64,000 nt of DNA from Sinohyriopsis cumingii. Lineage: Eukaryota; Mollusca; Bivalvia; Unionida; Unionidae. Below are positions 1 through 64,000 of the stretch, in pieces; the stretch's first letter is position 1, and every line of letters begins with the position of its first letter. The DNA lies in contig JAPYKE020000516.1 in NCBI GenBank assembly GCA_028554795.2, forward strand, positions 186,001-250,000, given 5' to 3'. Both the position numbers and the translations under genes were made by a program. Below the pieces are notes generated by a model. The model saw only the letters and a program-made list of their open reading frames with translations, was not told where the DNA came from and made no database searches.

Positions 1-149
1 CAATGTCGATAACTACAAAAGGTGACAATGGGATAGGAAAATAGTTTCTAGGGAGGCTCTACCTTACTAAAAAATGGTGCTGATCTCTCTCGTGAAGACC
101 TAAGCCAAGTCTCTGAGGTGCTATATATCAGTGTGGTGATATAAACTAG

Positions 150-300
150 TCTTGGCCACTTATGGCAGTACACTGCACATGCCCTTATAAAACCTTGCTA
201 TCACCGCCGGACTATTGGAGAGCTTAAAGCTGTTCCAACTCTAACACACTGTTCCAGATACCAGACTAAACCGGAAAAGATACAATATGTTTCACTTAAT
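150..300 (+). other. CpG- and GC-richer segment with a TATA-like motif (recurs in each unit)
   Basis: TATAAAA lies at 186-192, followed by a locally GC-richer stretch with CCGCCGG (about 204-210) and ACCGG near 270. These hold three of the roughly 17 CpGs in the unit. An ATTGG (inverted CCAAT) sits at 214-218, on the wrong side of the TATA motif for a standard plus-strand promoter. The arrangement could be a weak promoter, but in AT-rich DNA a TATA word is expected by chance. It repeats at the same offset in all units. Confidence 0.2.
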
Positions 301-625
301 TCTAGAAAACAGTAAGATCTAGGTAAATGAAGTTAAAATGTGTTAGATATGGTGATTTCAAGATAACATTAAGGTTGCAAGCATGGGGGAAAATATTAAA
401 CTTGACAGAGTGACACTCAGAAATGTGAAGCAATGGCCATGCATTAAAGTGATAAATTCATCCTAAAAATATATCAGGTTTCTAGAAGCATATTTAACCA
501 TTTACAGCTTAAATAACTAATCAGGTAGACTATGTATCATAAAGTTTAAGGCAATGTTGAGGCAGTGAGGTTTGATCATTGGTGCAAACATTAGTACATA
601 CCAGTATACAGGAAAGTCAAGTGAC

Positions 626-926
626 AATGTACTAAATTAGAATATATTACTATAAGCAATCTTATTCATGAGGGAAATAACAATTTTGCATATTGCAAGT
701 GAATACAGCCAAATGTGGTCACACAGATCAACTATAGGTACCAATAAATCCTATATCATCAACTAAATGTGAAAATCTGATCCCCAAAACTTGTAAACAA
801 GGATGGAAAATTGCATATGTGGGACATATACAATGTACTTGTTAAGATCAAATGTGCAAACATAATTCAAATGATCTGTTTGAACATTTATAGTGTATTT
901 TTAAGAGTGTTGGTTACCAATTATTA
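626..926 (+). repeat. Internal diverged direct repeat, copy A (present in every unit)
   Basis: This stretch aligns end to end with 984-1283 at an offset of about 358 bp. Shared anchors in order include tattcatga/gattcatga, acagcca, cactatagg/aactataggtac, aatgtgaa, gatccc, catatgtggga/catgtggga, gttaagatca, aatctgtttgaa and ccaattatta/acaaatatta. Identity looks like roughly 65-75% by eye with small indels. That is far below the >99% identity between units, so the duplication is much older than the current array. The same pair recurs in all 20 units. Confidence 0.9.
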
Positions 927-983
927 AGCTCATCGATTCAGTGGAATCAGATATCAGCTGATGCTTCAATACCGCACTCTCTC

Positions 984-1283
984 AAAGTACCAAATTGAAA
1001 TATGTTACCATACATAGGCAGATTCATGATGAAAATAACATTTTGGGATATTTTCAGTGCACACAGCCAGAAATGTGCCTTACAGATTCACTATAGGTAC
1101 AATTGTCAGCCTATATAATGTACTGAATGTGAACTTTTGATCCCAAACATTCTAAAATGTATTGATATTTGTTCATGTGGGATATGTAACCATGTTAAGA
1201 TCACTTATACAAAGTTAAGTACAAATAATCTGTTTGAATATTTCTTATGTAATCTTTAAAGTGTCAGTTAACAAATATTATTA
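984..1283 (+). repeat. Internal diverged direct repeat, copy B (present in every unit)
   Basis: This is the second member of the internal duplication, separated from copy A by about 57 bp. Both copies keep the order of all anchor words, so they arose by duplication and not by chance AT-richness. Neither copy has an open frame. The ancestral sequence is unrecognised. It could be a fragment of an old interspersed repeat or an earlier, shorter satellite unit on which the 3.2-kb unit was built. Confidence 0.9.
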
Positions 1284-1855
1284 GTAATTAATAATGCATA
1301 ATAAAGCAAGATGGATCATTAGAATTCCCATAACATCATATTGGCCACAATGACACACTACGCCAATCAATATCTTAACCAAACTGAACAATAAAATAGA
1401 ATTCATTCTGTGTTCAACTTAACATCATTTTGCTCTTTTCTTACATCCAAGGGTAAATATACCTGGGGAAAGCATATTTTATCCCTTGGACCTGTATTTC
1501 ATTCACAGACAGTGTAAAATGATTAAGTAGAGAACTTGAGTAGGTTCTATTATAAAGTTTTCATCACAGTCCTCTAACTAAATACCTTATAACTATGTTT
1601 ATAAACAATTACTAAAGGCTATACAAGCAGATATGTGTTACTCAGGAAGTGACCTCATCATAAACACATAAATTAACTGCTTGGAGCCGTAATAAATAGT
1701 CTGAATGGCCAATACAAAATATAATTTTGTCTTCATGTATTTAAAATGAAGGTCTCATTTTGACTTACAAAAATATTTTCTCTGACAAAATGTGACAAAT
1801 ATCCAACATTGGAGCTTGTATATGGTGTAGGAATATATACCTACTGATAACATTT

Positions 1856-1950
1856 AATATCATTCCAAAAAATATTATATATGTGCATTTTGGGAGGAAA
1901 CTTTATTAAAATTTTTAAATAAAAATTAATTTTTTACTTTTAATTTCATT
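1856..1950. other. Extremely A/T-rich patch (recurs in each unit)
   Basis: This stretch is almost pure A/T with runs such as aaattttt, aaataaaaatt and attttttac, broken by one short island (tgcattttgggagg). Such DNA unwinds readily and resembles matrix-attachment or replication-origin DNA, but no specific motif proves either. It is strongly conserved between units, like the rest of the repeat. Confidence 0.5.
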
Positions 1951-2176
1951 CTTATATTTTCACAGTCAATATACCTAACATATTCAAATTTCATGTGTCT
2001 ATCATTACTAATAAAGATTTTATACCAATTTAACTTTACTCCAATACTGCACTGACAGGATATAGAACATAATTAATTTTACTATATGTTCTCTACATTT
2101 GTTTCTCAGTACTGACCTTTCCACTGTGTGACAATCAATGCAAATCATATTTTAATCTAAAATACCTTCAAAGATG

Positions 2177-2191
2177 ACTTCACGGTGAAGT
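2177..2191. repeat. Short hyphenated inverted repeat ACTTCAC-G-GTGAAGT (recurs in each unit)
   Basis: Two perfect 7-bp arms flank one central base. In every unit I checked both arms are intact. The one change seen inside it is the central base in unit 9 (27949), where the CpG becomes CpA. It could be a dimeric protein-binding site, and the arm length is just enough to be noticed in 3.2 kb. No factor is assigned. Confidence 0.6.
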
Positions 2192-2796
2192 TGTTGTCAA
2201 AGGTTGACCTGCTCTTTTTTGAGATACTGGACTGTCAACATAGCAGCATGTAAACAGAACACAGATTTCACTTCCGAATCATCACCAAGGCCTTATTACT
2301 CACTGAGCGCTGTCGCCAAAATACACACAGACAACAACACCCTGAGCTCATATTATCAAGAATAAATGGTTACCTTTAAATCCCTACCAAAATGCATAAA
2401 TAAAACTCTTCTATCTCCACCAAAATAAGAGAGGAACACATATTCTAAAAATAGACTAGAAATACATTCGTGGGTACTGAACTGGAAGTATTAATTGTGA
2501 TGTAATTCCAGACAGGCTCCATGTTTTAAGCCAATTTTAGTCAAACTTTTATATTTGCATGCTATACCTATTTCAACTTTATACATGAAGTCTTTTTGAA
2601 ATTCCTTGCAAACAAAACATGTGACACCTGTCAGAAAGTATGTAGTGCTGGTGTTCCACAGGGTGCAAGGTCTAGTCCAAGTGCTCTTGAGAAGCCAAAA
2701 CTAAATTTGCTATATCTTCCTTAATTATAGAAATTTTTCAATGCAGTAAAAACCAAATTGTAATACAAGACAAGCCCTGTCTGAAAATATGTTTGA

Positions 2797-2818
2797 AATT
2801 TATCAATATTGATAAATT
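2797..2818. repeat. Perfect 22-bp AT-rich palindrome (recurs in each unit)
   Basis: The sequence centred on atcaatattgat reads identically on both strands over 22 bp. Pairing stops at the flanking A residues at 2796 and 2819. It sits at the left edge of the A/T-rich block at about 2790-2910, which also contains two ATTTAAAT 8-mers. The palindrome could extrude as a cruciform or bind a dimeric AT-preferring protein. It is intact in the units inspected. Confidence 0.9.
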
Positions 2819-2879
2819 AAATTTTAATCGCAATTTAAATAAACATTTAAATTTTAAAAAGTAAATCGTTATTGAAAAC

Positions 2880-2887
2880 TTAAATTT
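2880..2887. repeat. 8-bp indel site that defines long and short unit classes
   Basis: Long units read acttaaatttttatac and short units read acttatac. The missing 8 bp are bounded by two TTA direct repeats at 2880-2882 and 2888-2890, one of which remains after deletion. This is the usual trace of replication slippage. The segment is present in units 1-5, 8 and 12, and absent in 6, 7, 9-11 and 13-19. Unit 20 ends before it. Confidence 0.95.
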
Positions 2888-3223
2888 TTATACAAGTTTT
2901 AAAACACAGATTGACAAATTTTAGACAGAAAAGTTGACTAATGAATGGTATTTAAAACAAATGGTAGTCTGGGTTTGTACAACTGATAACATTTTTCCCA
3001 GGGATAGTGGAGCAACATAGCTCATAGTGATTTTGGCAGTAAACCGCTATATGCCTGTCCAGATACATATTGGTGTACACACTAAAGAAACAATGCCAGG
3101 TGCTATGTTCCACATTTATTGTGTCAGGTACTTAGGCAGTTGTTTCCATAACTAATAGCACATTCAGATTTAAAGTTCTGATGGGATCACTACCATGTTT
3201 TATAGCAAAAATGCATTCCATTT

Positions 3224-6200
3224 CAATGTCGATAACTACAAAAGGTGACAATGGGATAGGAAAATAGTTTCTAGGGAGGCTCTACCTTACTAAAAAATGG
3301 TGCTGATCTCTCTCGTGAAGACCTAAGCCAAGTCTCTGAGGTGCTATATATCAGTGTGGTGATATAAACTAGTCTTGGCCACTTATGGCAGTACACTGCA
3401 CATGCCCTTATAAAACCTTGCTATCACCGCCGGACTATTGGAGAGCTTAAAGCTGTTCCAACTCTAACACACTGTTCCAGATACCAGACTAAACCGGAAA
3501 AGATACAATATGTTTCACTTAATTCTAGAAAACAGTAAGATCTAGGTAAATGAAGTTAAAATGTGTTAGATATGGTGATTTCAAGATAACATTAAGGTTG
3601 CAAGCATGGGGGAAAATATTAAACTTGACAGAGTGACACTCAGAAATGTGAAGCAATGGCCATGCATTAAAGTGATAAATTCATCCTAAAAATATATCAG
3701 GTTTCTAGAAGCATATTTAACCATTTACAGCTTAAATAACTAATCAGGTAGACTATGTATCATAAAGTTTAAGGCAATGTTGAGGCAGTGAGGTTTGATC
3801 ATTGGTGCAAACATTAGTACATACCAGTATACAGGAAAGTCAAGTGACAATGTACTAAATTAGAATATATTACTATAAGCAATCTTATTCATGAGGGAAA
3901 TAACAATTTTGCATATTGCAAGTGAATACAGCCAAATGTGGTCACACAGATCAACTATAGGTACCAATAAATCCTATATCATCAACTAAATGTGAAAATC
4001 TGATCCCCAAAACTTGTAAACAAGGATGGAAAATTGCATATGTGGGACATATACAATGTACTTGTTAAGATCAAATGTGCAAACATAATTCAAATGATCT
4101 GTTTGAACATTTATAGTGTATTTTTAAGAGTGTTGGTTACCAATTATTAAGCTCATCGATTCAGTGGAATCAGATATCAGCTGATGCTTCAATACCGCAC
4201 TCTCTCAAAGTACCAAATTGAAATATGTTACCATACATAGGCAGATTCATGATGAAAATAACATTTTGGGATATTTTCAGTGCACACAGCCAGAAATGTG
4301 CCTTACAGATTCACTATAGGTACAATTGTCAGCCTATATAATGTACTGAATGTGAACTTTTGATCCCAAACATTCTAAAATGTATTGATATTTGTTCATG
4401 TGGGATATGTAACCATGTTAAGATCACTTATACAAAGTTAAGTACAAATAATCTGTTTGAATATTTCTTATGTAATCTTTAAAGTGTCAGTTAACAAATA
4501 TTATTAGTAATTAATAATGCATAATAAAGCAAGATGGATCATTAGAATTCCCATAACATCATATTGGCCACAATGACACACTACGCCAATCAATATCTTA
4601 ACCAAACTGAACAATAAAATAGAATTCATTCTGTGTTCAACTTAACATCATTTTGCTCTTTTCTTACATCCAAGGGTAAATATACCTGGGGAAAGCATAT
4701 TTTATCCCTTGGACCTGTATTTCATTCACAGACAGTGTAAAATGATTAAGTAGAGAACTTGAGTAGGTTCTATTATAAAGTTTTCATCACAGTCCTCTAA
4801 CTAAATACCTTATAACTATGTTTATAAACAATTACTAAAGGCTATACAAGCAGATATGTGTTACTCAGGAAGTGACCTCATCATAAACACATAAATTAAC
4901 TGCTTGGAGCCGTAATAAATAGTCTGAATGGCCAATACAAAATATAATTTTGTCTTCATGTATTTAAAATGAAGGTCTCATTTTGACTTACAAAAATATT
5001 TTCTCTGACAAAATGTGACAAATATCCAACATTGGAGCTTGTATATGGTGTAGGAATATATACCTACTGATAACATTTAATATCATTCCAAAAAATATTA
5101 TATATGTGCATTTTGGGAGGAAACTTTATTAAAATTTTTAAATAAAAATTAATTTTTTACTTTTAATTTCATTCTTATATTTTCACAGTCAATATACCTA
5201 ACATATTCAAATTTCATGTGTCTATCATTACTAATAAAGATTTTATACCAATTTAACTTTACTCCAATACTGCACTGACAGGATATAGAACATAATTAAT
5301 TTTACTATATGTTCTCTACATTTGTTTCTCAGTACTGACCTTTCCACTGTGTGACAATCAATGCAAATCATATGTTAATCTAAAATACCTTCAAAGATGA
5401 CTTCACGGTGAAGTTGTTGTCAAAGGTTGACCTGCTCTTTTTTGAGATACTGGACTGTCAACATAGCAGCATGTAAACAGAACACAGATTTCACTTCCGA
5501 ATCATCACCAAGGCCTTATTACTCACTGAGCGCTGTCGCCAAAATACACACAGACAACAACACCCTGAGCTCATATTATCAAGAATAAATGGTTACCTTT
5601 AAATCCCTACCAAAATGCATAAATAAAACTCTTCTATCTCCACCAAAATAAGAGAGGAACACATATTCTAAAAATAGACTAGAAATACATTCGTGGGTAC
5701 TGAACTGGAAGTATTAATTGTGATGTAATTCCAGACAGGCTCCATGTTTTAAGCCAATTTTAGTCAAACTTTTATATTTGCATGCTATACCTATTTCAAC
5801 TTTATACATGAAGTCTTTTTGAAATTCCTTGCAAACAAAACATGTGACACCTGTCAGAAAGTATGTAGTGCTGGTGTTCCACAGGGTGCAAGGTCTAGTC
5901 CAAGTGCTCTTGAGAAGCCAAAACTAAATTTGCTATATCTTCCTTAATTATAGAAATTTTTCAATGCAGTAAAAACCAAATTGTAATACAAGACAAGCCC
6001 TGTCTGAAAATATGTTTGAAATTTATCAATATTGATAAATTAAATTTTAATCGCAATTTAAATAAACATTTAAATTTTAAAAAGTAAATCGTTATTGAAA
6101 ACTTAAATTTTTATACAAGTTTTAAAACACAGATTGACAAATTTTAGACAGAAAAGTTGACTAATGAATGGTATTTAAAACAAATGGTAGTCTGGGTTTG

Positions 6201-6446
6201 TACAACTGATAACATTTTTCCCAGGGATAGTGGAGCAACATAGCTCATAGTGATTTTGGCAGTAAACCGCTATATGCCTGTCCAGATACATATTGGTGTA
6301 CACACTAAAGAAACAATGCCAGGTGCTATGTTCCACATTTATTGTGTCAGGTACTTAGGCAGTTGTTTCCATAACTAATAGCACATTCAGATTTAAAGTT
6401 CTGATGGGATCACTACCATGTTTTATAGCAAAAATGCATTCCATTT
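3224..6446 (+). repeat. Repeat unit 2 (long class, 3223 bp), near-twin of unit 1
   Basis: By eye it differs from unit 1 at a single base: G at 5374 where unit 1 has T at 2151. It keeps the whole unit-1 haplotype, including the CpG at site 934, AATC at 945-948, G at 1021 and T at 3187. Such near-identity between neighbours fits a very recent single-unit duplication or conversion. Confidence 0.97.
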
Positions 6447-9400
6447 CAATGTCGATAACTACAAAAGGTGACAATGGGATAGGAAAATAGTTTCTAGGGA
6501 GGCTCTACCTTACTAAAAAATGGTGCTGATCTCTCTCGTGAAGACCTAAGCCAAGTCTCTGAGGTGCTATATATCAGTGTGGTGATATAAACTAGTCTTG
6601 GCCACTTATGGCAGTACACTGCACATGCCCTTATAAAACCTTGCTATCACCGCCGGACTATTGGAGAGCTTAAAGCTGTTCCAACTCTAACACACTGTTC
6701 CAGATTCCAGACTAAACCGGAAAAGATACAATATGTTTCACTTAATTCTAGAAAACAGTAAGATCTAGGTAAATGAAGTTAAAATGTGTTAGATATGGTG
6801 ATTTCAAGATAACATTAAGGTTGCAAGCATGGGGGAAAATATTAAACTTGACAGAGTGACACTCAGAAATGTGAAGCAATGGCCATGCATTAAAGTGATA
6901 AATTCATCCTAAAAATATATCAGGTTTCTAGAAGCATATTTAACCATTTACAGCTTAAATAACTAATCAGGTAGACTATGTATCATAAAGTTTAAGGCAA
7001 TGTTGAGGCAGTGAGGTTTGATCATTGGTGCAAACATTAGTACATACCAGTATACAGGGAAGTCAAGTGACAATGTACTAAATTAGAATATATTACTATA
7101 AGCAATCTTATTCATGAGGGAAATAACAATTTTGCATATTGCAAGTGAATACAGCCAAATGTGGTCACACAGATCAACTATAGGTACCAATAAATCCTAT
7201 ATCATCAACTAAATGTGAAAATCTGATCCCAAAACTTGTAAACAAGGATGGAAAATTGCATATGTGGGACATATACAATGTACTTGTTAAGATCAAATGT
7301 GCAAACATAATTCAAATGATCTGTTTGAACATTTATAGTGTATTTTTAAGAGTGTTGGTTACCAATTATTAAGCTCATTGATTCAGTGGGAGCAGATATC
7401 AGCTGATGCTTCAATACCGCACTCTCTCAAAGTACCAAATTGAAATATGTTACCATACATAGGCATATTCATGATGAAAATAACATTTTGGGATATTTTC
7501 AGTGCACACAGCCAGAAATGTGCCTTACAGATTCACTATAGGTACAATTGTCAGCCTATATGATGTACTGAATGTGAACTTTTGATCCCAAACATTCTAA
7601 AATGTATTGATATTTGTTCATGTGGGATATGTAACCATGTTAAGATCACTTATACAAAGTTAAGTACAAATAATCTGTTTGAATATTTCTTATGTAATCT
7701 TTAAAGTGTCAGTTAACAAATATTATTAGTAATTAATAATGCATGATAAAGCAAGATGGATCATTAGAATTCCCATAACATCATATTGGCCACAATGACA
7801 CACTACGCCAATCAATATCTTAACCAAACTGAACAATAAAATAGAATTCATTCTGTGTTCAACTTAACATCATTTTGCTCTTTTCTTACATCCAAGGGTA
7901 AATATACCTGGGGAAAGCATATTTTATCCCTTGGACCTGTATTTCATTCACAGACAGTGTAAAATGATTAAGTAGAGAACTTGAGTAGGTTCTATTATAA
8001 AGTTTTCATCACAGTCCTCTAACTAAATACCTTATAACTATGTTTATAAACAATTACTAAAGGCTATACAAGCAGATATGTGTTACTCAGGAAGTGACCT
8101 CATCATAAACACATAAATTAACTGCTTGGAGCCGTAATAAATAGTCTGAATGGCCAATACAAAATATAATTTTGTCTTCATGTATTTAAAATGAAGGTCT
8201 CATTTTGACTTACAAAAATATTTTCTCTGACAAAATGTGACAAATATCCAACATTGGAGCTTGTATATGGTGTAGGAATATATACCTACTGATAACATTT
8301 AATATCATTCCAAAAAATATTATATATGTGCATTTTGGGAGGAAACTTTATTAAAATTTTTAAATAAAAATTAATTTTTTACTTTTAATTTCATTCTTAT
8401 ATTTTCACAGTCAATATACCTAACATATTCAAATTTCATGTGTCTATCATTACTAATAAAGATTTTATACCAATTTAACTTTACTCCAATACTGCACTGA
8501 CAGGATATAGAACATAATTAATTTTACTATATGTTCTCTACATTTGTTTCTCAGTACTGACCTTTCCACTGTGTGACAATCAATGCAAATCATATGTTAA
8601 TCTAAAATACCTTCAAAGATGACTTCACGGTGAAGTTCTTGTCAAAGGTTGACCTGCTCTTTTTTGAGATACTGGACTGTCAACATAGCAGCATGTAAAC
8701 AGAACACAGATTTCACTTCCGAATCATCACCAAGGCCTTATTACTCACTGAGCGCTGTCGCCAAAATACACACAGACAACAACACCCTGAGCTCATATTA
8801 TCAAGAATAAATGGTTACCTTTATATCCCTACCAAAATGCATAAATAAAACTCTTCTATCTCCACCAAAATAAGAGAGGAACAAATATTCTAAAAATAGA
8901 CTAGAAATACATTCGTGGGAACTGAACTGGAAGTATTAATTGTGATGTAATTCCTGACAGGCTCCATGTTTTAAGCCAATTTTAGTCAAACTTTTATATT
9001 TGCATGCTATACCTATTTCAACTTTATACATGAAGTCTTTTTGAAATTCCTTGCAAACAAAACATGTGACACCTGTCAGAAAGTATGTAGTGCTGGTGTT
9101 CCACAGGGTGCAAGGTCTAGTCCAAGTGCTCTTGAGAAGCCAAAACTAAATTTGCTATATCTTCCTTAATTATAGAAATTTTTCAATGCAGTAAAAACCA
9201 AATTGTAATACAAGACAAGCCCTGTCTGAAAATATGTTTGAAATTTATCAATATTGATAAATTAAATTTTAATCGCAATTTAAATAAACATTTAAATTTT
9301 AAAAAGTAAATCGTTATTGAAAACTTAAATTTTTATACAAGTTTTAAAACACAGATTGACAAATTTTAGACAGAAAAGTTGACTAATGAATGGTATTTAA

Positions 9401-9668
9401 AACAAATGGTAGTCTGGGTTTGTACAACTGATAACATTTTTCCCAGGGATAGTGGAGCAACATAGCTCATAGTGATTTTGGCAGTAAACCGCTATATGCC
9501 TGTCCAGATACATATTGGTGTACACACTAAAGAAACAATGCCAGGTGCTATGTTCCACATTTATTGTGTCAGGTACTTAGGCAGTTGTTTCCATAACTAA
9601 TAGCACATTCAGATTTAAAGTTCTGATGGGACCACTACCATGTTTTATAGCAAAAATGCATTCCATTT
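6447..9668 (+). repeat. Repeat unit 3 (long class, 3222 bp), near-twin of unit 5
   Basis: It shares with unit 5 alone T at site 260 and G at site 613. With units 5 and 7 it shares one missing C in the run at 782-785. It has the GAGC form at 945-948, C at 2193, T at 2379 and A at 2475. This set defines one of two main 3'-half haplotypes in the array, seen also in units 5, 7 and 8. Confidence 0.97.
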
Positions 9669-12600: not shown

Positions 12601-12891
12601 GTTGACTAATGAATGGTATTTAAAACAAATGGTAGTCTGGGTTTGTACAACTGATAACATTTTTCCCAGGGATAGTGGAGCAACATAGCTCATAGTGATT
12701 TTGGCAGTAAACCGCTATATGCCTGTCCAGATACATATTGGTGTACACACTAAAGAAACAATGCCAGGTGCTATGTTCCACATTTATTGTGTCAGGTACT
12801 TAGGCAGTTGTTTCCATAACTAATAGCACATTCAGATTTAAAGTTCTGATGGGATCACTACCATGTTTTATAGCAAAAATGCATTCCATTT
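9669..12891 (+). repeat. Repeat unit 4 (long class, 3223 bp), apparent chimera
   Basis: Its 5' part matches the majority type: G at site 265, T at 934, GAGC at 945-948, and G at 1539 (base 11207) as in units 6, 9 and 11. Its 3' part matches unit 1: T at site 2151 (base 11819, otherwise seen only in unit 1), C at 2439, A at 2510 and T at 3187. The switch lies between 11207 and 11819. A conversion tract or crossover with a unit-1-like donor explains it best. Confidence 0.96.
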
Positions 12892-15800: not shown

Positions 15801-16113
15801 TTGACAAATTTTAGACAGAAAAGTTGACTAATGAATGGTATTTAAAACAAATGGTAGTCTGGGTTTGTACAACTGATAACATTTTTCCCAGGGATAGTGG
15901 AGCAACATAGCTCATAGTTATTTTGGCAGTAAACCGCTATATGCCTGTCCAGATACATATTGGTGTACACACTAAAGAAACAATGCCAGGTGCTATGTTC
16001 CACATTTATTGTGTCAGGTACTTAGGCAGTTGTTTCCATAACTAATAGCACATTCAGATTTAAAGTTCTGATGGGACCACTACCATGTTTTATAGCAAAA
16101 ATGCATTCCATTT
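12892..16113 (+). repeat. Repeat unit 5 (long class, 3222 bp), near-twin of unit 3
   Basis: It carries the full unit-3 haplotype, including the private T at site 260 and G at site 613, and the shortened C-run near site 782. The one extra difference I noticed is T for G at 15919. Its twin is two units away rather than adjacent, which points to a duplication step of two units (about 6.4 kb). Confidence 0.97.
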
Positions 16114-48000: not shown

Positions 48001-48279
48001 ATGGTATTTAAAACAAATGGTAGTCTGGGTTTGTACAACTGATAACATTTTTCCCAGGGATAGTGGAGCAACATAGCTCATAGTGATTTTGGCAGTAAAC
48101 CGCTATATGCCTGTCCAGATACATATTGGTGTACACACTAAAGAAACAATGCCAGGTGCTATGTTCCACATTTATTGTGTCAGGTACTTAGGCAGTTGTT
48201 TCCATAACTAATAGCACATTCAGATTTAAAGTTCTGATGGGACCACTACCATGTTTTATAGCAAAAATGCATTCCATTT
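45065..48279 (+). repeat. Repeat unit 15 (short class, 3215 bp)
   Basis: A at site 362 and C at site 2764 are shared only with unit 16. C at site 2084 is shared with units 16 and 17. A at 2510 is an otherwise left-end state (units 1, 2 and 4) that reappears in units 15 and 16. It has C at 2193, unlike unit 16. The private change is G for T at 45566. Confidence 0.96.
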
Positions 48280-51200: not shown

Positions 51201-51494
51201 AAAGTTGACTAATGAATGGTATTTAAAACAAATGGTAGTCTGGGTTTGTACAACTGATAACATTTTTCCCAGGGATAGTGGAGCAACATAGCTCATAGTG
51301 ATTTTGGCAGTAAACCGCTATATGCCTGTCCAGATACATATTGGTGTACACACTAAAGAAACAATGCCAGGTGCTATGTTCCACATTTATTGTGTCAGGT
51401 ACTTAGGCAGTTGTTTCCATAACTAATAGCACATTCAGATTTAAAGTTCTGATGGGACCACTACCATGTTTTATAGCAAAAATGCATTCCATTT
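48280..51494 (+). repeat. Repeat unit 16 (short class, 3215 bp), near-twin of unit 15
   Basis: It shares A at 362, C at 2084, A at 2510 and C at 2764 with unit 15. It differs at 2193 (G instead of C) and lacks the private G of unit 15. No private change was noticed. It looks like a recent adjacent duplication of the unit-15 type. Confidence 0.96.
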
Positions 51495-54400
51495 CAATGT
51501 CGATAACTACAAAAGGTGACAATGGGATAGGAAAATAGTTTCTAGGGAGGCTCTACCTTACTAAAAAATGGTGCTGATCTCTCTCGTGAAGACCTAAGCC
51601 AAGTCTCTGAGGTGCTATATATCAGTGTGGTGATATAAACTAGTCTTGGCCACTTATGGCAGTACACTGCACATGCCCTTATAAAACCTTGCTATCACCG
51701 CCGGACTATTGGAGAGCTTAAAGCTGTTCCAACTCTAACACACTGTTCCAGATACCAGGCTAAACCGGAAAAGATACAATATGTTTCACTTAATTCTAGA
51801 AAACAGTAAGATCTAGGTAAATGAAGTTAAAATGTGTTAGATATGGTGATTTCAAGATAACATTAAGGTTGCAAGCATGGGGGAAAATATTAAACTTGAC
51901 AGAGTGACACTCAGAAATGTGAAGCAATGGCCATGCATTAAAGTGATAAATTCATCCTAAAAATATATCAGGTTTCTAGAAGCATATTTAACCATTTACA
52001 GCTTAAATAACTAATCAGGTAGACTATGTATCATAAAGTTTAAGGCAATGTTGAGGCAGTGAGGTTTGATCATTGGTGCAAACATTAGTACATACCAGTA
52101 TACAGGAAAGTCAAGTGACAATGTACTAAATTAGAATATATTACTATAAGCAATCTTATTCATGAGGGAAATAACAATTTTGCATATTGCAAGTGAATAC
52201 AGCCAAATGTGGTCACACAGATCAACTATAGGTACCAATAAATCCTATATCATCAACTAAATGTGAAAATCTGATCCCCAAAACTTGTAAACAAGGATGG
52301 AAAATTGCATATGTGGGACATATACAATGTACTTGTTAAGATCAAATGTGCAAACATAATTCAAATGATCTGTTTGAACATTTATAGTGTATTTTTAAGA
52401 GTGTTGGTTACCAATTATTAAGCTCATTGATTCAGTGGGAGCAGATATCAGCTGATGCTTCAATACCGCACTCTCTCAAAGTACCAAATTGAAATATGTT
52501 ACCATACATAGGCATATTCATGATGAAAATAACATTTTGGGATATTTTCAGTGCACACAGCCAGAAATGTGCCTTACAGATTCACTATAGGTACAATTGT
52601 CAGCCTATATGATGTACTGAATGTGAACTTTTGATCCCAAACATTCTAAAATGTATTGATATTTGTTCATGTGGGATATGTAACCATGTTAAGATCACTT
52701 ATACAAAGTTAAGTACAAATAATCTGTTTGAATATTTCTTATGTAATCTTTAAAGTGTCAGTTAACAAATATTATTAGTAATTAATAATGCATGATAAAG
52801 CAAGATGGATCATTAGAATTCCCATAACATCATATTGGCCACAATGACACACTACGCCAATCAATATCTTAACCAAACTGAACAATAAAATAGAATTCAT
52901 TCTGTGTTCAACTTAACATCATTTTGCTCTTTTCTTACATCCAAGGGTAAATATACCTGGGGAAAGCATATTTTATCCCTTGGACCTGTATTTCATTCAC
53001 AGACAGTGTAAAATGATTAAGTAGAGAACTTGAGTAGGTTCTATTATAAAGTTTTCATCACAGTCCTCTAACTAAATACCTTATAACTATGTTTATAAAC
53101 AATTACTAAAGGCTATACAAGCAGATATGTGTTACTCAGGAAGTGACCTCATCATAAACACATAAATTAACTGCTTGGAGCCGTAATAAATAGTCTGAAT
53201 GGCCAATACAAAATATAATTTTGTCTTCATGTATTTAAAATGAAGGTCTCATTTTGACTTACAAAAATATTTTCTCTGACAAAATGTGACAAATATCCAA
53301 CATTGGAGCTTGTATATGGTGTAGGAATATATACCTACTGATAACATTTAATATCATTCCAAAAAATATTATATATGTGCATTTTGGGAGGAAACTTTAT
53401 TAAAATTTTTAAATAAAAATTAATTTTTTACTTTTAATTTCATTCTTATATTTTCACAGTCAATATACCTAACATATTCAAATTTCATGTGTCTATCATT
53501 ACTAATAAAGATTTTATACCAATTTAACTTTACTCCAATACTGCACTGACAGGATATAGAACATAATTAATTTTACTCTATGTTCTCTACATTTGTTTCT
53601 CAGTACTGACCTTTCCACTGTGTGACAATCAATGCAAATCATATGTTAATCTAAAATACCTTCAAAGATGACTTCACGGTGAAGTTGTTGTCAAAGGTTG
53701 ACCTGCTCTTTTTTGAGATACTGGACTGTCAACATAGCAGCATGTAAACAGAACACAGATTTCACTTCCGAATCATCAACAAGGCCTTATTACTCACTGA
53801 GCGCTGTCGCCAAAATACACACAGACAACAACACCCTGAGCTCATATTATCAAGAATAAATGGTTACCTTTAAATCCCTACCAAAATGCATAAATAAAAC
53901 TCTTCTATCTCCACCAAAATAAGAGAGGAACAAATATTCTAAAAATAGACTAGAAATACATTCGTGGGTACTGAACTGGAAGTATTAATTGTGATGTAAT
54001 TCCTGACAGGCTCCATGTTTTAAGCCAATTTTAGTCAAACTTTTATATTTGCATGCTATACCTATTTCAACTTTATACATGAAGTCTTTTTGAAATTCCT
54101 TGCAAACAAAACATGTGACACCTGTCAGAAAGTATGTAGTGCTGGTGTTCCACAGGGTGCAAGGTCTAGTCCAAGTGCTCTTGAGAAGCCAAAACTAAAT
54201 TTGCTATATCTTCCTTAATTATAGAAATTTTTCAATGCAGTAAAAACCAAATTGTAATACAAGACAAGCCCTGTCTGAAAATATGTTTGAAATTTATCAA
54301 TATTGATAAATTAAATTTTAATCGCAATTTAAATAAACATTTAAATTTTAAAAAGTAAATCGTTATTGAAAACTTATACAAGTTTTAAAACACAGATTGA

Positions 54401-54709
54401 CAAATTTTAGACAGAAAAGTTGACTAATGAATGGTATTTAAAACAAATGGTAGTCTGGGTTTGTACAACTGATAACATTTTTCCCAGGGATAGTGGAGCA
54501 ACATAGCTCATAGTGATTTTGGCAGTAAACCGCTATATGCCTGTCCAGATACATATTGGTGTACACACTAAAGAAACAATGCCAGGTGCTATGTTCCACA
54601 TTTATTGTGTCAGGTACTTAGGCAGTTGTTTCCATAACTAATAGCACATTCAGATTTAAAGTTCTGATGGGACCACTACCATGTTTTATAGCAAAAATGC
54701 ATTCCATTT
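51495..54709 (+). repeat. Repeat unit 17 (short class, 3215 bp)
   Basis: It shares C at site 2084 with units 15 and 16 but has the common states at 362, 2510 and 2764, so it groups with them over only part of its length. It has GAGC at 945-948, G at 2193, A at 2285 and the 8-bp deletion. No private change was noticed. Confidence 0.96.
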
Positions 54710-57700
54710 CAATGTCGATAACTACAAAAGGTGACAATGGGATAGGAAAATAGTTTCTAGGGAGGCTCTACCTTACTAAAAAATGGTGCTGATCTCTCTC
54801 GTGAAGACCTAAGCCAAGTCTCTGAGGTGCTATATATCAGTGTGGTGATATAAACTAGTCTTGGCCACTTATGGCAGTACACTGCACATGCCCTTATAAA
54901 ACCTTGCTATCACCGCCGGACTATTGGAGAGCTTAAAGCTGTTCCAACTCTAACACACTGTTCCAGATACCAGGCTAAACCGGAAAAGATACAATATGTT
55001 TCACTTAATTCTAGAAAACAGTAAGATCTAGGTAAATGAAGTTAAAATGTGTTAGATATGGTGATTTCAAGATAACATTAAGGTTGCAAGCATGGGGGAA
55101 AATATTAAACTTGACAGAGTGACACTCAGAAATGTGAAGCAATGGCCATGCATTAAAGTGATAAATTCATCCTAAAAATATATCATTTTTCTAGAAGCAT
55201 ATTTAACCATTTACAGCTTAAATAACTAATCAGGTAGACTATGTATCATAAAGTTTAAGGCAATGTTGAGGCAGTGAGGTTTGATCATTGGTGCAAACAT
55301 TAGTACATACCAGTATACAGGAAAGTCAAGTGACAATGTACTAAATTAGAATATATTACTATAAGCAATCTTATTCATGAGGGAAATAACAATTTTGCAT
55401 ATTGCAAGTGAATACAGCCAAATGTGGTCACACAGATCAACTATAGGTACCAATAAATCCTATATCATCAACTAAATGTGAAAATCTGATCCCCAAAACT
55501 TGTAAACAAGGATGGAAAATTGCATATGTGGGACATATACAATGTACTTGTTAAGATCAAATGTGCAAACATAATTCAAATGATCTGTTTGAACATTTAT
55601 AGTGTATTTGTAAGAGTGTTGGTTACCAATTATTAAGCTCATTGATTCAGTGGAATCAGATATCAGCTGATGCTTCAATACCGCACTCTCTCAAAGTACC
55701 AAATTGAAATATGTTACCATACATAGGCATATTCATGATGAAAATAACATTTTGGGATATTTTCAGTGCACACAGCCAGAAATGTGCCTTACAGATTCAC
55801 TATAGGTACAATTGTCAGCCTATATGATGTACTGAATGTGAACTTTTGATCCCAAACATTCTAAAATGTATTGATATTTGTTCATGTGGGATATGTAACC
55901 ATGTTAAGATCACTTATACAAAGTTAAGTACAAATAATCTGTTTGAATATTTCTTATGTAATCTTTAAAGTGTCAGTTAACAAATATTATTAGTAATTAA
56001 TAATGCATGATAAAGCAAGATGGATCATTAGAATTCCCATAACATCATATTGGCCACAATGACACACTACGCCAATCAATATCTTAACCAAACTGAACAA
56101 TAAAATAGAATTCATTCTGTGTTCAACTTAACATCATTTTGCTCTTTTCTTACATCCAAGGGTAAATATACCTGGGGAAAGCATATTTTATCCCTTGGAC
56201 CTGTATTTCATTCACAGACAGTGTAAAATGATTAAGTAGAGAACTTGAGTAGGTTCTATTATAAAGTTTTCATCACAGTCCTCTAACTAAATACCTTATA
56301 ACTATGTTTATAAACAATTACTAAAGGCTATACAAGCAGATATGTGTTACTCAGGAAGTGACCTCATCATAAACACATAAATTAACTGCTTGGAGCCGTA
56401 ATAAATAGTCTGAATGGCCAATACAAAATATAATTTTGTCTTCATGTATTTAAAATGAAGGTCTCATTTTGACTTACAAAAATATTTTCTCAGACAAAAT
56501 GTGACAAATATCCAACATTGGAGCTTGTATATGGTGTAGGAATATATACCTACTGATAACATTTAATATCATTCCAAAAAATATTATATATGTGCATTTT
56601 GGGAGGAAACTTTATTAAAATTTTTAAATAAAAATTAATTTTTTACTTTTAATTTCATTCTTATATTTTCACAGTCAATATACCTAACATATTCAAATTT
56701 CATGTGTCTATCATTACTAATAAAGATTTTATACCAATTTAACTTTACTCCAATACTGCACTGACAGGATATAGAACATAATTAATTTTACTATATGTTC
56801 TCTACATTTGTTTCTCAGTACTGACCTTTCCACTGTGTGACAATCAATGCAAATCATATGTTAATCTAAAATACCTTCAAAGATGACTTCACGGTGAAGT
56901 TGTTGTCAAAGGTTGACCTGCTCTTTTTTGAGATACTGGACTGTCAACATAGCAGCATGTAAACAGAACACAGATTTCACTTCCGAATCATCAGCAAGGC
57001 CTTATTACTCACTGAGCGCTGTCGCCAAAATACACACAGACAACAACACCCTGAGCTCATATTATCAAGAATAAATGGTTACCTTTAAATCCCTACCAAA
57101 ATGCATAAATAAAACTCTTCTATCTCCACCAAAATAAGAGTGGAACAAATATTCTAAAAATAGACTAGAAATACATTCGTGGGTACTGAACTGGAAGTAT
57201 TAATTGTGATGTAATTCCTGACAGGCTCCATGTTTTAAGCCAATTTTAGTCAAACTTTTATATTTGCATGCTATACCTATTTCAACTTTATACATGAAGT
57301 CTTTTTGAAATTCCTTGCAAACAAAACATGTGACACCTGTCAGAAAGTATGTAGTGCTGGTGTTCCACAGGGTGCAAGGTCTAGTCCAAGTGCTCTTGAG
57401 AAGCCAAAACTAAATTTGCTATATCTTCCTTAATTATAGAAATTTTTCAATGCAGTAAAAACCAAATTGTAATACAAGACAAGCCCTGTCTGAAAATATG
57501 TTTGAAATTTATCAATATTGATAAATTAAATTTTAATCGCAATTTAAATAAACATTTAAATTTTAAAAAGTAAATCGTTATTGAAAACTTATACAAGTTT
57601 TAAAACACAGATTGACAAATTTTAGACAGAAAAGTTGACTAATGAATGGTCTTTAAAACCAATGGTAGTCTGTGTTTGTACAACTGATAACATTTTTCCC

Positions 57701-57924
57701 AGGGATAGTGGAGCAACATAGCTCATAGTGATTTTGGCAGTAAACCGCTATATGCCTGTCCAGATACATATTGGTGTACACACTAAAGAAACAATGCCAG
57801 GTGCTATGTTCCACATTTATTGTGTCAGGTACTTAGGCAGTTGTTTCCATAACTAATAGCACATTCCGATTTAAAGTTCTGATGGGACCACTACCATGTT
57901 TTATAGCAAAAATGCATTCCATTT
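54710..57924 (+). repeat. Repeat unit 18 (short class, 3215 bp), carrying a set of private transversions
   Basis: Private differences noticed are TT for GG at 55186-55187, G for T at 55610, C for A at 57651 and 57660, T for G at 57673, and C for A at 57867. All of these are G/T or A/C transversions. Site 2285 is G here (base 56994), a third state. It has AATC at 945-948, A at 1783 (shared with units 11 and 20) and T at 2432 (shared with unit 20). The change at 55610 removes a minus-strand stop and creates a chance 68-codon frame. Confidence 0.95.
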
Positions 57925-60900
57925 CAATGTCGATAACTACAAAAGGTGACAATGGGATAGGAAAATAGTTTCTAGGGAGGCTCTACCTTACTAAAAAATG
58001 GTGCTGATCTCTCTCGTGAAGACCTAAGCCAAGTCTCTGAGGTGCTATATATCAGTGTGGTGATATAAACTAGTCTTGGCCACTTATGGCAGTACACTGC
58101 ACATGCCCTTATAAAACCTTGCTATCACCGCCGGACTATTGGAGAGCTTAAAGCTGTTCCAACTCTAACACACTGTTCCAGATACCAGGCTAAACCGGAA
58201 AAGATACAATATGTTTCACTTAATTCTAGAAAACAGTAAGATCTAGGTAAATGAAGTTAAAATGTGTTAGATATGGTGATTTCAAGATAACATTAAGGTT
58301 GCAAGCATGGGGGAAAATATTAAACTTGACAGAGTGACACTCAGAAATGTGAAGCAATGGCCATGCATTAAAGTGATAAATTCATCCTAAAAATATATCA
58401 GGTTTCTAGAAGCATATTTAACCATTTACAGCTTAAATAACTAATCAGGTAGACTATGTATCATAAAGTTTAAGGCAATGTTGAGGCAGTGAGGTTTGAT
58501 CATTGGTGCAAACATTAGTACATACCAGTATACAGGAAAGTCAAGTGACAATGTACTAAATTAGAATATATTACTATAAGCAATCTTATTCATGAGGGAA
58601 ATAACAATTTTGCATATTGCAAGTGAATACAGCCAAATGTGGTCACACAGATCAACTATAGGTACCAATAAATCCTATATCATCAACTAAATGTGAAAAT
58701 CTGATCCCCAAAACTTGTAAACAAGGATGGAAAATTGCATATGTGGGACATATACAATGTACTTGTTAAGATCAAATGTGCAAACATAATTCAAATGATC
58801 TGTTTGAACATTTATAGTGTATTTTTAAGAGTGTTGGTTACCAATTATTAAGCTCATTGATTCAGTGGAATCAGATATCAGCTGATGCTTCAATACCGCA
58901 CTCTCTCAAAGTACCAAATTGAAATATGTTACCATACATAGGCATATTCATGATGAAAATAACATTTTGGGATATTTTCAGTGCACACAGCCAGAAATGT
59001 GCCTTACAGATTCACTATAGGTACAATTGTCAGCCTATATGATGTACTGAATGTGAACTTTTGATCCCAAACATTCTAAAATGTATTGATATTTGTTCAT
59101 GTGGGATATGTAACCATGTTAAGATCACTTATACAAAGTTAAGTACAAATAATCTGTTTGAATATTTCTTATGTAATCTTTAAAGTGTCAGTTAACAAAT
59201 ATTATTAGTAATTAATAATGCATGATAAAGCAAGATGGATCATTAGAATTCCCATAACATCATATTGGCCACAATGACACACTACGCCAATCAATATCTT
59301 AACCAAACTGAACAATAAAATAGAATTCATTCTGTGTTCAACTTAACATCATTTTGCTCTTTTCTTACATCCAAGGGTAAATATACCTGGGGAAAGCATA
59401 TTTTATCCCTTGGACCTGTATTTCATTCACAGACAGTGTAAAATGATTAAGTAGAGAACTTGAGTAGGTTCTATTATAAAGTTTTCATCACAGTCCTCTA
59501 ACTAAATACCTTATAACTATGTTTATAAACAATTACTAAAGGCTATACAAGCAGATATGTGTTACTCAGGAAGTGACCTCATCATAAACACATAAATTAA
59601 CTGCTTGGAGCCGTAATAAATAGTCTGAATGGCCAATACAAAATATAATTTTGTCTTCATGTATTTAAAATGAAGGTCTCATTTTGACTTACAAAAATAT
59701 TTTCTCTGACAAAATGTGACAAATATCCAACATTGGAGCTTGTATATGGTGTAGGAATATATACCTACTGATAACATTTAATATCATTCCAAAAAATATT
59801 ATATATGTGCATTTTGGGAGGAAACTTTATTAAAATTTTTAAATAAAAATTAATTTTTTACTTTTAATTTCATTCTTATATTTTCACAGTCAATATACCT
59901 AACATATTCAAATTTCATGTGTCTATCATTACTAATAAAGATTTTATACCAATTTAACTTTACTCCAATACTGCACTGACAGGATATAGAACATAATTAA
60001 TTTTACTATATGTTCTCTACATTTGTTTCTCAGTACTGACCTTTCCACTGTGTGACAATCAATGCAAATCATATGTTAATCTAAAATACCTTCAAAGATG
60101 ACTTCACGGTGAAGTTGTTGTCAAAGGTTGACCTGCTCTTTTTTGAGATACTGGACTGTCAACATAGCAGCATGTAAACAGAACACAGATTTCACTTCCG
60201 AATCATCACCAAGGCCTTATTACTCACTGAGCGCTGTCGCCAAAATACACACAGACAACAACACCCTGAGCTCATATTATCAAGAATAAATGGTTACCTT
60301 TAAATCCCTACCAAAATGCATAAATAAAACTCTTCTATCTCCACCAAAATAAGAGAGGAACAAATATTCTAAAAATAGACTAGAAATACATTCGTGGGTA
60401 CTGAACTGGAAGTATTAATTGTGATGTAATTCCTGACAGGCTCCATGTTTTAAGCCAATTTTAGTCAAACTTTTATATTTGCATGCTATACCTATTTCAA
60501 CTTTATACATGAAGTCTTTTTGAAATTCCTTGCAAACAAAACATGTGACACCTGTCAGAAAGTATGTAGTGCTGGTGTTCCACAGGGTGCAAGGTCTAGT
60601 CCAAGTGCTCTTGAGAAGCCAAAACTAAATTTGCTATATCTTCCTTAATTATAGAAATTTTTCAATGCAGTAAAAACCAAATTGTAATACAAGACAAGCC
60701 CTGTCTGAAAATATGTTTGAAATTTATCAATATTGATAAATTAAATTTTAATCGCAATTTAAATAAACATTTAAATTTTAAAAAGTAAATCGTTATTGAA
60801 AACTTATACAAGTTTTAAAACACAGATTGACAAATTTTAGACAGAAAAGTTGACTAATGAATGGTATTTAAAACAAATGGTAGTCTGGGTTTGTACAACT

Positions 60901-61139
60901 GATAACATTTTTCCCAGGGATAGTGGAGCAACATAGCTCATAGTGATTTTGGCAGTAAACCGCTATATGCCTGTCCAGATACATATTGGTGTACACACTA
61001 AAGAAACAATGCCAGGTGCTATGTTCCACATTTATTGTGTCAGGTACTTAGGCAGTTGTTTCCATAACTAATAGCACATTCAGATTTAAAGTTCTGATGG
61101 GACCACTACCATGTTTTATAGCAAAAATGCATTCCATTT
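57925..61139 (+). repeat. Repeat unit 19 (short class, 3215 bp)
   Basis: It has G at 265, AATC at 945-948, T at 1783, G at 2193, C at 2285, A at 2439, T at 2510 and the 8-bp deletion. No private change was noticed. Among the units seen, it and unit 17 are the closest to a plain consensus of the right half of the array. Confidence 0.96.
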
Positions 61140-64000
61140 CAATGTCGATAACTACAAAAGGTGACAATGGGATAGGAAAATAGTTTCTAGGGAGGCTCTA
61201 CCTTACTAAAAAATGGTGCTGATCTCTCTCGTGAAGACCTAAGCCAAGTCTCTGAGGTGCTATATATCAGTGTGGTGATATAAACTAGTCTTGGCCACTT
61301 ATGGCAGTACACTGCACATGCCCTTATAAAACCTTGCTATCACCGCCGGACTATTGGAGAGCTTAAAGCTGTTCCAACTCTAACACACTGTTCCAGATAC
61401 CAGACTAAACCGGAAAAGATACAATATGTTTCACTTAATTCTAGAAAACAGTAAGATCTAGGTAAATGAAGTTAAAATGTGTTAGATATGGTGATTTCAA
61501 GATAACATTAAGGTTGCAAGCATGGGGGAAAATATTAAACTTGACAGAGTGACACTCAGAAATGTGAAGCAATGGCCATGCATTAAAGTGATAAATTCAT
61601 CCTAAAAATATATCAGGTTTCTAGAAGCATATTTAACCATTTACAGCTTAAATAACTAATCAGGTAGACTATGTATCATAAAGTTTAAGGCAATGTTGAG
61701 GCAGTGAGGTTTGATCATTGGTGCAAACATTAGTACATACCAGTATACAGGAAAGTCAAGTGACAATGTACTAAATTAGAATATATTACTATAAGCAATC
61801 TTATTCATGAGGGAAATAACAATTTTGCATATTGCAAGTGAATACAGCCAAATGTGGTCACACAGATCAACTATAGGTACCAATAAATCCTATATCATCA
61901 ACTAAATGTGAAAATCTGATCCCCAAAACTTGTAAACAAGGATGGAAAATTGCATATGTGGGACATATACAATGTACTTGTTAAGATCAAATGTGCAAAC
62001 ATAATTCAAATGATCTGTTTGAACATTTATAGTGTATTTTTAAGAGTGTTGGTTACCAATTATTAAGCTCATTGATTCAGTGGAATCAGATATCAGCTGA
62101 TGCTTCAATACCGCACTCTCTCAAAGTACCAAATTGAAATATGTTACCATACATAGGCATATTCATGATGAAAATAACATTTTGGGATATTTTCAGTGCA
62201 CACAGCCAGAAATGTGCCTTACAGATTCACTATAGGTACAATTGTCAGCCTATATGATGTACTGAATGTGAACTTTTGATCCCAAACATTCTAAAATGTA
62301 TTGATATTTGTTCATGTGGGATATGTAACCATGTTAAGATCACTTATACAAAGTTAAGTACAAATAATCTGTTTGAATATTTCTTATGTAATCTTTAAAG
62401 TGTCAGTTAACAAATATTATTAGTAATTAATAATGCATGATAAAGCAAGATGGATCATTAGAATTCCCATAACATCATATTGGCCACAATGACACACTAC
62501 GCCAATCAATATCTTAACCAAACTGAACAATAAAATAGAATTCATTCTGTGTTCAACTTAACATCATTTTGCTCTTTTCTTACATCCAAGGGTAAATATA
62601 CCTGGGGAAAGCATATTTTATCCCTTGGACCTGTATTTCATTCACAGACAGTGTAAAATGATTAAGTAGAGAACTTGAGTAGGTTCTATTATAAAGTTTT
62701 CATCACAGTCCTCTAACTAAATACCTTATAACTATGTTTATAAACAATTACTAAAGGCTATACAAGCAGATATGTGTTACTCAGGAAGTGACCTCATCAT
62801 AAACACATAAATTAACTGCTTGGAGCCGTAATACATAGTCTGAATGGCCAATACAAAATATAATTTTGTCTTCATGTATTTAAAATGAAGGTCTCATTTT
62901 GACTTACAAAAATATTTTCTCAGACAAAATGTGACAAATATCCAACATTGGAGCTTGTATATGGTGTAGGAATATATACCTACTGATAACATTTAATATC
63001 ATTCCAAAAAATATTATATATGTGCATTTTGGGAGGAAACTTTATTAAAATTTTTAAATAAAAATTAATTTTTTACTTTTAATTTCATTCTTATATTTTC
63101 ACAGTCAATATACCTAACATATTCAAATTTCATGTGTCTATCATTACTAATAAAGATTTTATACCAATTTAACTTTACTCCAATACTGCACTGACAGGAT
63201 ATAGAACATAATTAATTTTACTATATGTTCTCTACATTTGTTTCTCAGTACTGACCTTTCCACTGTGTGACAATCAATGCAAATCATATGTTAATCTAAA
63301 ATACCTTCAAAGATGACTTCACGGTGAAGTTCTTGTCAAAGGTTGACCTGCTCTTTTTTGAGATACTGGACTGTCAACATAGCAGCATGTAAACAGAACA
63401 CAGATTTCACTTCCGAATCATCACCAAGGCCTTATTACTCACTGAGCGCTGTCGCCAAAATACACACAGACAACAACACCCTGAGCTCATATTATCAAGA
63501 ATAAATGGTTACCTTTAAATCCCTACCAAAATGCATAAATAAAACTCTTCTATCTCCACCAAAATAAGAGTGGAACAAATATTCAAAAAATAGACTAGAA
63601 ATACATTCGTGGGTACTGAACTGGAAGTATTAATTGTGATGTAATTCCTGACAGGCTCCATGTTTTAAGCCAATTTTAGTCAAACTTTTATATTTGCATG
63701 CTATACCTATTTCAACTTTATACATGAAGTCTTTTTGAAATTCCTTGCAAACAAAACATGTGACACCTGTCAGAAAGTATGTAGTGCTGGTGTTCCACAG
63801 GGTGCAAGGTCTAGTCCAAGTGCTCTTGAGAAGCCAAAACTAAATTTGCTATATCTTCCTTAATTATAGAAATTTTTCAATGCAGTAAAAACCAAATTGT
63901 AATACAAGACAAGCCCTGTCTGAAAATATGTTTGAAATTTATCAATATTGATAAATTAAATTTTAATCGCAATTTAAATAAACATTTAAATTTTAAAAAG
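61140..64000 (+). repeat. Repeat unit 20, partial (2861 bp), cut by the window end
   Basis: The unit is truncated by the window just before the 8-bp indel, so its length class is unknown. It has A at site 265, a left-end state shared with units 1, 2, 3 and 5. It also has AATC at 945-948, A at 1783, C at 2193 and T at 2432. Private changes are C for A at 62834 and A for T at 63585. The array evidently continues beyond 64000. Confidence 0.96.

What the first reader, a model, noticed from the sequence alone, without database searches (positions are those of the whole stretch)
1..64000. A ≥64-kb array of a 3.2-kb non-coding macrosatellite unit that I cannot match to a named family
Twenty head-to-tail units fill the window with no spacer, inversion or coding frame. 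Known macrosatellites such as D4Z4, DXZ4 and RS447 are GC-rich or carry an ORF, while this unit is AT-rich, CpG-poor and frame-free. It could be a structural or chromatin-organising array, or the template of a repetitive long non-coding RNA. The function is inference.
Basis: partly seen in the sequence, partly recalled or inferred. Interest (0 to 1): 0.7.

Follow-up and report, generated by a model that had tools for sequence, protein, structure and literature searches.

The report
Jumping-gene-derived giant tandem array, freshwater mussel
In what looks like a freshwater-mussel genome, a 3.2-kb stretch repeated head to tail across the window appears to be a non-coding LTR-type jumping gene that was amplified into a giant tandem block; this process is known from plants and clams, but here it is unusually large.

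Summary
The array is real. Nineteen complete units and one cut unit (3,214-3,223 bp, 99.15-99.97% identical to unit 1) fill the window, with no ORF of 110 aa or more. It belongs to a 365-kb contig: 3.2-kb units to 292,380, then an in-phase array of 7.71-kb units sharing 1.38 kb with them. The genome is probably not a vertebrate: two mitochondrial genomes, one with a long male-type cox2 extension, point to a freshwater mussel (Unionida). The unit is not an orphan. Two probes from one 0.27-0.52 kb segment hit 3,862 and 2,975 places; four from the rest hit 804-1,371. At some dispersed sites that segment lies on both sides of one internal copy, 3.07-3.24 kb apart, like an LTR; an array on C2 has four such segments and three internals. 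Best reading: a non-autonomous LTR-retrotransposon-like element with solo LTRs, amplified by LTR-LTR exchange. Plant Cassandra and bivalve biv-TRIM arrays are precedents, reported shorter in what I read. Element ends, target-site duplications and primer site could not be read. A centromeric role is possible but untested.

The parts
1..64000 (+). Part of a head-to-tail array of 3.2-kb units (window = C516:186001-250000); 19 complete units and one cut at the window end
1..3223 (+). Reference unit (U), 3223 bp; 3215 bp is the commonest length (35 of 78 units of the contig)
2052..2397 (.). Terminal-repeat (LTR-like) segment of unit 1. Left edge bracketed to about 2035-2098 and right edge to about 2365-2557 by probe counts and positions; the exact ends given here are a guess from the B|S junction of the 7.71-kb unit and a TG...CA pair
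   Evidence: exact ends inferred
2398..3223 (.). Internal region shared with the 7.71-kb unit (S, first part); probes 2557 and 3121 lie here
3224..3436 (.). End of the shared segment S (unit positions 1-213, here in the second unit)
214..2051 (.). Internal region A, only in the 3.2-kb unit; replaced by 6.33-kb B in the 7.71-kb unit. Probes 1629 and 1995 lie here
625..926 (+). First copy of an old internal duplication in A (71% identical to 983-1280)
983..1280 (+). Second copy of the internal duplication in A

Best explanation
The unit is one LTR plus the internal region of a non-coding, non-autonomous LTR-retrotransposon-like element of a freshwater mussel. Dispersed copies have the form LTR-internal-LTR or a lone LTR. 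At a few sites LTR-to-LTR recombination (or integration of concatenated cDNA) made LTR-(internal-LTR)n tandem blocks. At one locus, partly placed at the middle of scaffold C8, the block grew to about 1.2 Mb as seen by probes, up to 1.85 Mb if the unseen stretches of the array contigs are array too, by unequal exchange that also homogenised it and made local dimeric repeats. A second version with the same LTR and adjoining internal part but a 6.3-kb region B (7.71-kb unit) is fused in phase to the 3.2-kb array. Shown: tandem array, dispersed copies, direct terminal repeats around a single internal copy at several sites, excess of terminal repeats, in-phase 7.71-kb array. Inferred: the retrotransposition mechanism, the recombination route, one single locus. 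No host function is needed; it most likely behaves as heterochromatic selfish DNA.
For: Probe counts at up to 3 mismatches: positions 2098 and 2325, 3,862 and 2,975; positions 2557, 3121, 1629, 1995: 1,371, 1,164, 804, 1,013. Exact matches only: of 9 listed non-tandem 3121-sites on C1-C2, 4 have 2098-probes on both sides (-1023 and +2214, 3237 bp apart), 2 on one side, 3 on neither. Of 36 listed non-tandem 3121-sites on C1-C8 (counted), 3 have 2325-probes on both sides (C1:173.69, C6:164.12, C8:11.11 Mb; 3220, 3215, 3071 bp apart), 4 on one side, 29 on neither. C2:143.96 Mb has 4 terminal probes and 3 internals. On C8 the array's left end is at a 2325-probe with no exact 2557- or 3121-probe listed beyond it. 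The 7.71-kb unit shares unit 2058-3223 (98.1%) and 1-213 (93.5%) and joins in phase. Dimeric repeats: mean differences at lag 1 and lag 2 are 27.4 and 6.5 at C516:0-20 kb, 22.0 and 4.5 at 66-86 kb (six units each). Precedents with solo repeats and tandem arrays: PMC6934838, PMC7215508.
Against: By eye no clear polypurine tract stands upstream of the LTR in the + orientation. No convincing gag-pol relic: 6 pieces of the 7.71-kb unit gave only two sub-threshold Pfam matches, and four rough motif patterns found no RT, protease or integrase match and one zinc-knuckle-like match with stops close on both sides. Listings show exact matches first and stop at 100 rows, so bracketing is tested on few sites, and 3 of 9 and 29 of 36 sites were not bracketed by an exact probe. 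Only one exact copy of region A outside the array contigs was listed (C2:133208066), and none with probe 1995.
Confidence: 0.8

Rival explanations
1. Another class of mobile element with direct terminal repeats (Penelope-like with pseudo-LTRs, DIRS-like, or a rolling-circle element) gave rise to the array.
For: In the Pacific oyster satellite-like repeats are carried by Helentron elements (PMC7492417, title and start of abstract in the listing). No LTR hallmarks were read here.
Against: Excess of lone terminal repeats and the same 3237-bp spacing at several separate sites fit LTR elements best. No Rfam family reached its gathering score in the window.
Confidence: 0.12
2. A true satellite arose first and fragments were dispersed later by recombination or extrachromosomal circles.
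For: The array is large and homogeneous, and short tandem runs exist on C1, C2 and C6.
Against: Random fragments would not give two to five times more of one 0.27-0.52 kb segment than of the rest, nor that segment on both sides of one internal copy at separate sites.
Confidence: 0.07
3. The C8 array is a centromere or pericentromere of that chromosome and is kept for that reason (compatible with an LTR origin).
For: It lies at 63.07-63.26 Mb of a 127.58-Mb scaffold (49.5%), at a 100-N gap. LTR-derived arrays expand mainly in primary constrictions in Lathyrus (PMC7004042 abstract).
Against: Among the rows listed, C8 is the only chromosome-sized scaffold with the long array; C1-C7 show short runs or single copies. 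Scaffold placement of repeat contigs is unreliable, and no centromere position is known here.
Confidence: 0.18
4. The tandem structure is an assembly artefact.
For: Four of the five contigs seen with it are small and all or largely array, and C516 starts with an inverted fragment.
Against: Units differ along the contig, with subfamilies and local dimers. Five contigs carry the family, with different unit lengths.
Confidence: 0.03

Closest known systems
biv-TRIM of bivalves (PMC6934838; abstract, part 1 of 2 of the Results, and Discussion read)
   Same: Bivalve host; non-coding element with two terminal direct repeats; solo terminal repeats; tandem arrays of the form TDRx_I(x-1); no autonomous partner found
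   Different: biv-TRIM has 202-218 bp repeats and a 77-80 bp internal domain; the longest locus in R. philippinarum is TDR58_I57, insertion loci reach 16,618 bp. Here the period is 3.2 kb, the block reaches hundreds of kilobases, and a Unionida host is inferred. Sequences were not compared
Cassandra TRIM tandem arrays in plants (PMC7215508; abstract and passages read)
   Same: Non-coding LTR element in long tandem arrays with LTRs separated by the internal domain; recombination proposed
   Different: Plant; LTR holds a 5S RNA sequence; clusters of 13 LTRs and 12 internals detected by PCR
LTR-retrotransposon-derived satellites of Lathyrus sativus (PMC7004042; abstract and list of sections read)
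   Same: Dispersed LTR elements whose derivatives expand into long arrays, mainly at primary constrictions
   Different: There short tandem arrays inside the element expand; here the whole LTR-internal unit is the repeat
LARD (large retrotransposon derivatives; recalled)
   Same: Kilobase-long non-coding internal region between LTRs
   Different: Defining termini not verified here
D4Z4, DXZ4, RS447 macrosatellites
   Same: Kilobase-scale tandem unit

Membership tests
Non-autonomous LTR retrotransposon (TRIM/LARD-like) | Two direct terminal repeats around one internal region at dispersed sites | tested here: met
   exact matches: 4 of 9 listed non-tandem 3121-sites on C1-C2 bracketed by 2098-probes (2 one-sided, 3 none); 3 of 36 on C1-C8 bracketed by 2325-probes (4 one-sided, 29 none; n)
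Non-autonomous LTR retrotransposon (TRIM/LARD-like) | Solo terminal repeats in excess | tested here: met
   Counts against 29, 32, 37, 40; 69 of 95 exact 2098-probes on C1-C2 have no exact 3121- or 2557-probe within 4.5 kb (upper bound for solo copies, since diverged internals are not counted)
Non-autonomous LTR retrotransposon (TRIM/LARD-like) | No coding capacity | tested here: met
   For the array units only; dispersed copies were not read
Non-autonomous LTR retrotransposon (TRIM/LARD-like) | TG...CA ends and target-site duplication | not tested
Non-autonomous LTR retrotransposon (TRIM/LARD-like) | Primer-binding site and polypurine tract | tested here: inconclusive
   By eye in the output: no convincing site in the + orientation, a purine-rich stretch in the - orientation near unit 2401-2425; no tRNA comparison was run
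TRIM proper | Miniature size | tested here: not met
   Terminal-repeat spacing 3.07-3.24 kb at the bracketed sites; biv-TRIM repeats are 202-218 bp with 77-80 bp inside (PMC6934838)
Satellite / macrosatellite | Long homogeneous head-to-tail array | tested here: met
Freshwater mussel (Unionida) host | Divergent M-type mtDNA with long cox2 extension | tested here: met
   After the COX2 domain the C1106 cox2 frame goes on for 193 aa, the C807 one for 11 aa; published unionid M extension usually 531-576 bp (PMC5222514 passages). No reference mitochondrial genome was compared

The most novel reading that the evidence does not exclude
A whole-element LTR-retrotransposon array, fused from two versions of the element (3.2 and 7.7 kb), forms a chromosome-specific centromeric or pericentromeric block of 1.2 to 1.85 Mb in a bivalve, so that a recently mobile retroelement has become the DNA of one centromere.
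Probability: 0.15. Interest if true: 0.65.

Novelty: new member of a known kind. Interest (0 to 1): 0.38.

Why it matters
One assembly seems to hold the steps from single LTR elements and lone LTRs, through short arrays (3 to 12 internals), to an array of hundreds of kilobases. That would make the retrotransposon-to-satellite route testable in an animal, and two sister arrays with a shared segment let exchange and homogenisation be measured.

Tried and rejected
Named macrosatellite of a vertebrate: set aside because the mitochondrial genomes are of freshwater-mussel type.

Structured RNA in the unit: no Rfam family at gathering score in the window. Coding relics: six stop-to-stop pieces of the 7.71-kb unit gave two sub-threshold Pfam matches (14.2 bits each, cut-off 27); shorter pieces were listed but not searched. 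Plasmid collection: no match, as expected and uninformative.

An ancestral A-S-B locus with two overlapping tandem duplications was my first model for the fused arrays. It was dropped when S turned out to be dispersed with terminal repeats. B is also dispersed: probe 3780 hits 147 and probe 249 hits 198 places at up to 3 mismatches, array copies included, and among the listed rows four chromosomal loci have both in order, 2.85-3.52 kb apart (3.53 in the unit). Whether those B copies carry the same LTR was not tested.

Whole-unit DNA search of the genome was not scored by the tool, so 40-base probes were used.

Full report
Observation. The window is filled by 20 plus-strand copies of a 3.2-kb unit (19 complete, one cut), 99.15-99.97% identical to the first, 3,214-3,223 bp long. 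GC is 32.3% and CpG observed/expected 0.19; there is no ORF of 110 aa or more and no Rfam match at gathering score.

Host. The genome has 2,904,868,851 bases in 1,138 contigs. A COX1 search found three places: two on C807, 15,961 bp apart, and one on C1106. C807 has the order cox2-cox1-cox3-atp6 (translations; Pfam for cox2, cox3 and atp6); C1106 has cox2 (Pfam) and cox1 in the same order, its cox3 and atp6 recognised only by likeness. After the COX2 domain the C1106 frame goes on for 193 aa (to 410), the C807 one for 11. Published unionid male-type mitochondrial genomes carry a 3' cox2 extension of usually 531-576 bp (PMC5222514, passages). I conclude a freshwater mussel, Unionida, probably a male. 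A published unionid genome has 2.80 Gb and 19 chromosomes (PMC12048480, passages); among the rows, coordinates of tens of Mb occur only on contigs C1-C19. The species is not identified and no reference mitochondrial genome was compared. Other bivalves with doubly uniparental inheritance exist, so the order is an inference.

Surroundings. The window is C516:186001-250000. In the 329 of 365 kb of this contig that I held, 3.2-kb units run from 246 to 292,380, then a 7,711-bp unit runs to the contig end. The two units share unit positions 2058-3223 (98.1%) and 1-213 (93.5%); the rest shows no similarity, A (1.85 kb) in one and B (6.33 kb) in the other. The switch is in phase. B holds a tRNA-Pro-like stretch, probably the head of a SINE (L007:4145-4219). 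The first 20 kb and the stretch 66-86 kb are dimeric higher-order repeats (six units each); the window itself is not. The mean difference between the 78 units aligned is 22.3 bases, the maximum 45.

Genome-wide. The exact A probe (unit 1995-2034) hits 344 places, 106 forward and 238 reverse; the 100 listed lie on C8 (58), C54 (15) and C242 (27). C516 has 80 in the part fetched. The exact B probe (3780) hits 59 places, all listed: C54 6, C242 23, C442 20, C516 10. Contig lengths are C8 127.58 Mb, C54 203 kb, C242 940 kb, C442 153 kb. On C8 the array lies at 63.07-63.26 Mb, 49.5% along, and ends in a 100-N gap followed by 719 bases read that do not match either unit. In unit orientation C54 and C242 have B probes before A probes, C516 A before B. 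In C242 the listed A probes end at 199 kb and the B probes begin at 746 kb; the 153 unlisted reverse hits would fill that stretch (inference). C54:51-148 kb has no listed A or B probe. The five contigs give about 1.2 Mb covered by probes as listed, and 1.85 Mb if all of the four small contigs is array (sum). That they are one locus is an inference; haplotypes may be mixed.

Dispersal and terminal repeats. The 3121 probe hit single sites on C1-C8 on both strands, as well as short runs at 3237-3241 bp, some at 2779, on C1 (12), C2 (3) and C6 (6) (listing ends within the C8 array). At up to 3 mismatches the 2098 probe hit 3,862 places and the 2325 probe 2,975, while 2557, 3121, 1629 and 1995 hit 1,371, 1,164, 804 and 1,013; the reversed-pattern control was 0 in each of the ten probe searches. 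One search compares exact hits. Of 9 listed non-tandem 3121-sites on C1-C2, 4 have 2098-probes at -1023 and +2214, 2 have one, 3 have none. Of 36 on C1-C8, 3 have 2325-probes on both sides, at 3220, 3215 and 3071 bp, 4 on one side, 29 on neither; the site on C1 among the 3 is one of the one-sided sites of the first test. The long C1 run has no exact 2325-probe, so this probe evidently differs in that subfamily, which may explain part of the 29. The C2 run has four 2098-probes and three 3121-probes. On C1-C2, 69 of 95 exact 2098-probes have no exact internal probe within 4.5 kb. These are the marks of LTR-internal-LTR elements, solo LTRs and LTR-(internal-LTR)n arrays. The terminal repeat lies between about 2035-2098 and 2365-2557, so 0.27-0.52 kb.

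Limits. Listings put exact matches first and stop at 100 rows, so positions were compared for exact copies only. I could not read any dispersed copy, so element ends, target-site duplications and primer sites remain unverified. Region A in dispersed copies is supported by counts (804 and 1,013 hits, of which I estimate about 400 in the arrays from contig lengths) and by one exact site, C2:133208066, 2,750 bp after a 2098-probe (2,754 expected); the second A probe has no exact site listed outside the array contigs.

Known kinds. Bivalve biv-TRIM shows solo terminal repeats and tandem arrays up to TDR58_I57 (PMC6934838: abstract, part 1 of 2 of the Results, Discussion). Plant Cassandra shows at least 12 tandem copies (PMC7215508: abstract and passages). 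In Lathyrus, LTR-derived arrays expanded mainly in primary constrictions (PMC7004042: abstract). In a survey of molluscs LTR elements average 1.52% of the genome, with 6.66% in the unionid Megalonaias nervosa (PMC10294476: passages). I saw no report of this array or element in the listings of my searches of open papers, which do not cover subscription journals or repeat databases. The case is a new and very large member of a known kind.

Noticed in passing
G000:C807 and G000:C1106 (L028-L030): Two divergent mitochondrial genomes, one on a contig with two COX1 copies 15,961 bp apart, the other with a long cox2 extension: doubly uniparental inheritance in the sequenced animal is likely.
   Followed up: partly
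G000:C2:139.538-139.752 Mb: Six exact 2098-probes on the same strand spaced 40.5-44.0 kb apart: perhaps a roughly 43-kb tandem segmental duplication that carries one LTR.
   Followed up: no
G000:C54:1-203417: 7.7-kb units inverted at 1-51 kb and direct at 149-152 kb, 3.2-kb units at 158-203 kb; 51-148 kb has no listed A or B probe.
   Followed up: no
G000:C1:97.197-97.205 Mb: Two bracketed elements in opposite orientation, their facing terminal probes about 0.8 kb apart.
   Followed up: partly
L007:4145-4219: tRNA-Pro-like stretch, probably the head of a SINE, inside region B, minus strand.
   Followed up: partly
L001:1-251 (C516 start): Inverted fragment (unit 413-654) fused to plus-strand unit position 905: a true inversion junction or a contig-end artefact.
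   Followed up: no
window 1138-1147: The unit holds TGATCCCAAA, the first ten letters of a segment that PMC6934838 reports as conserved inside biv-TRIM; may well be chance.
   Followed up: no
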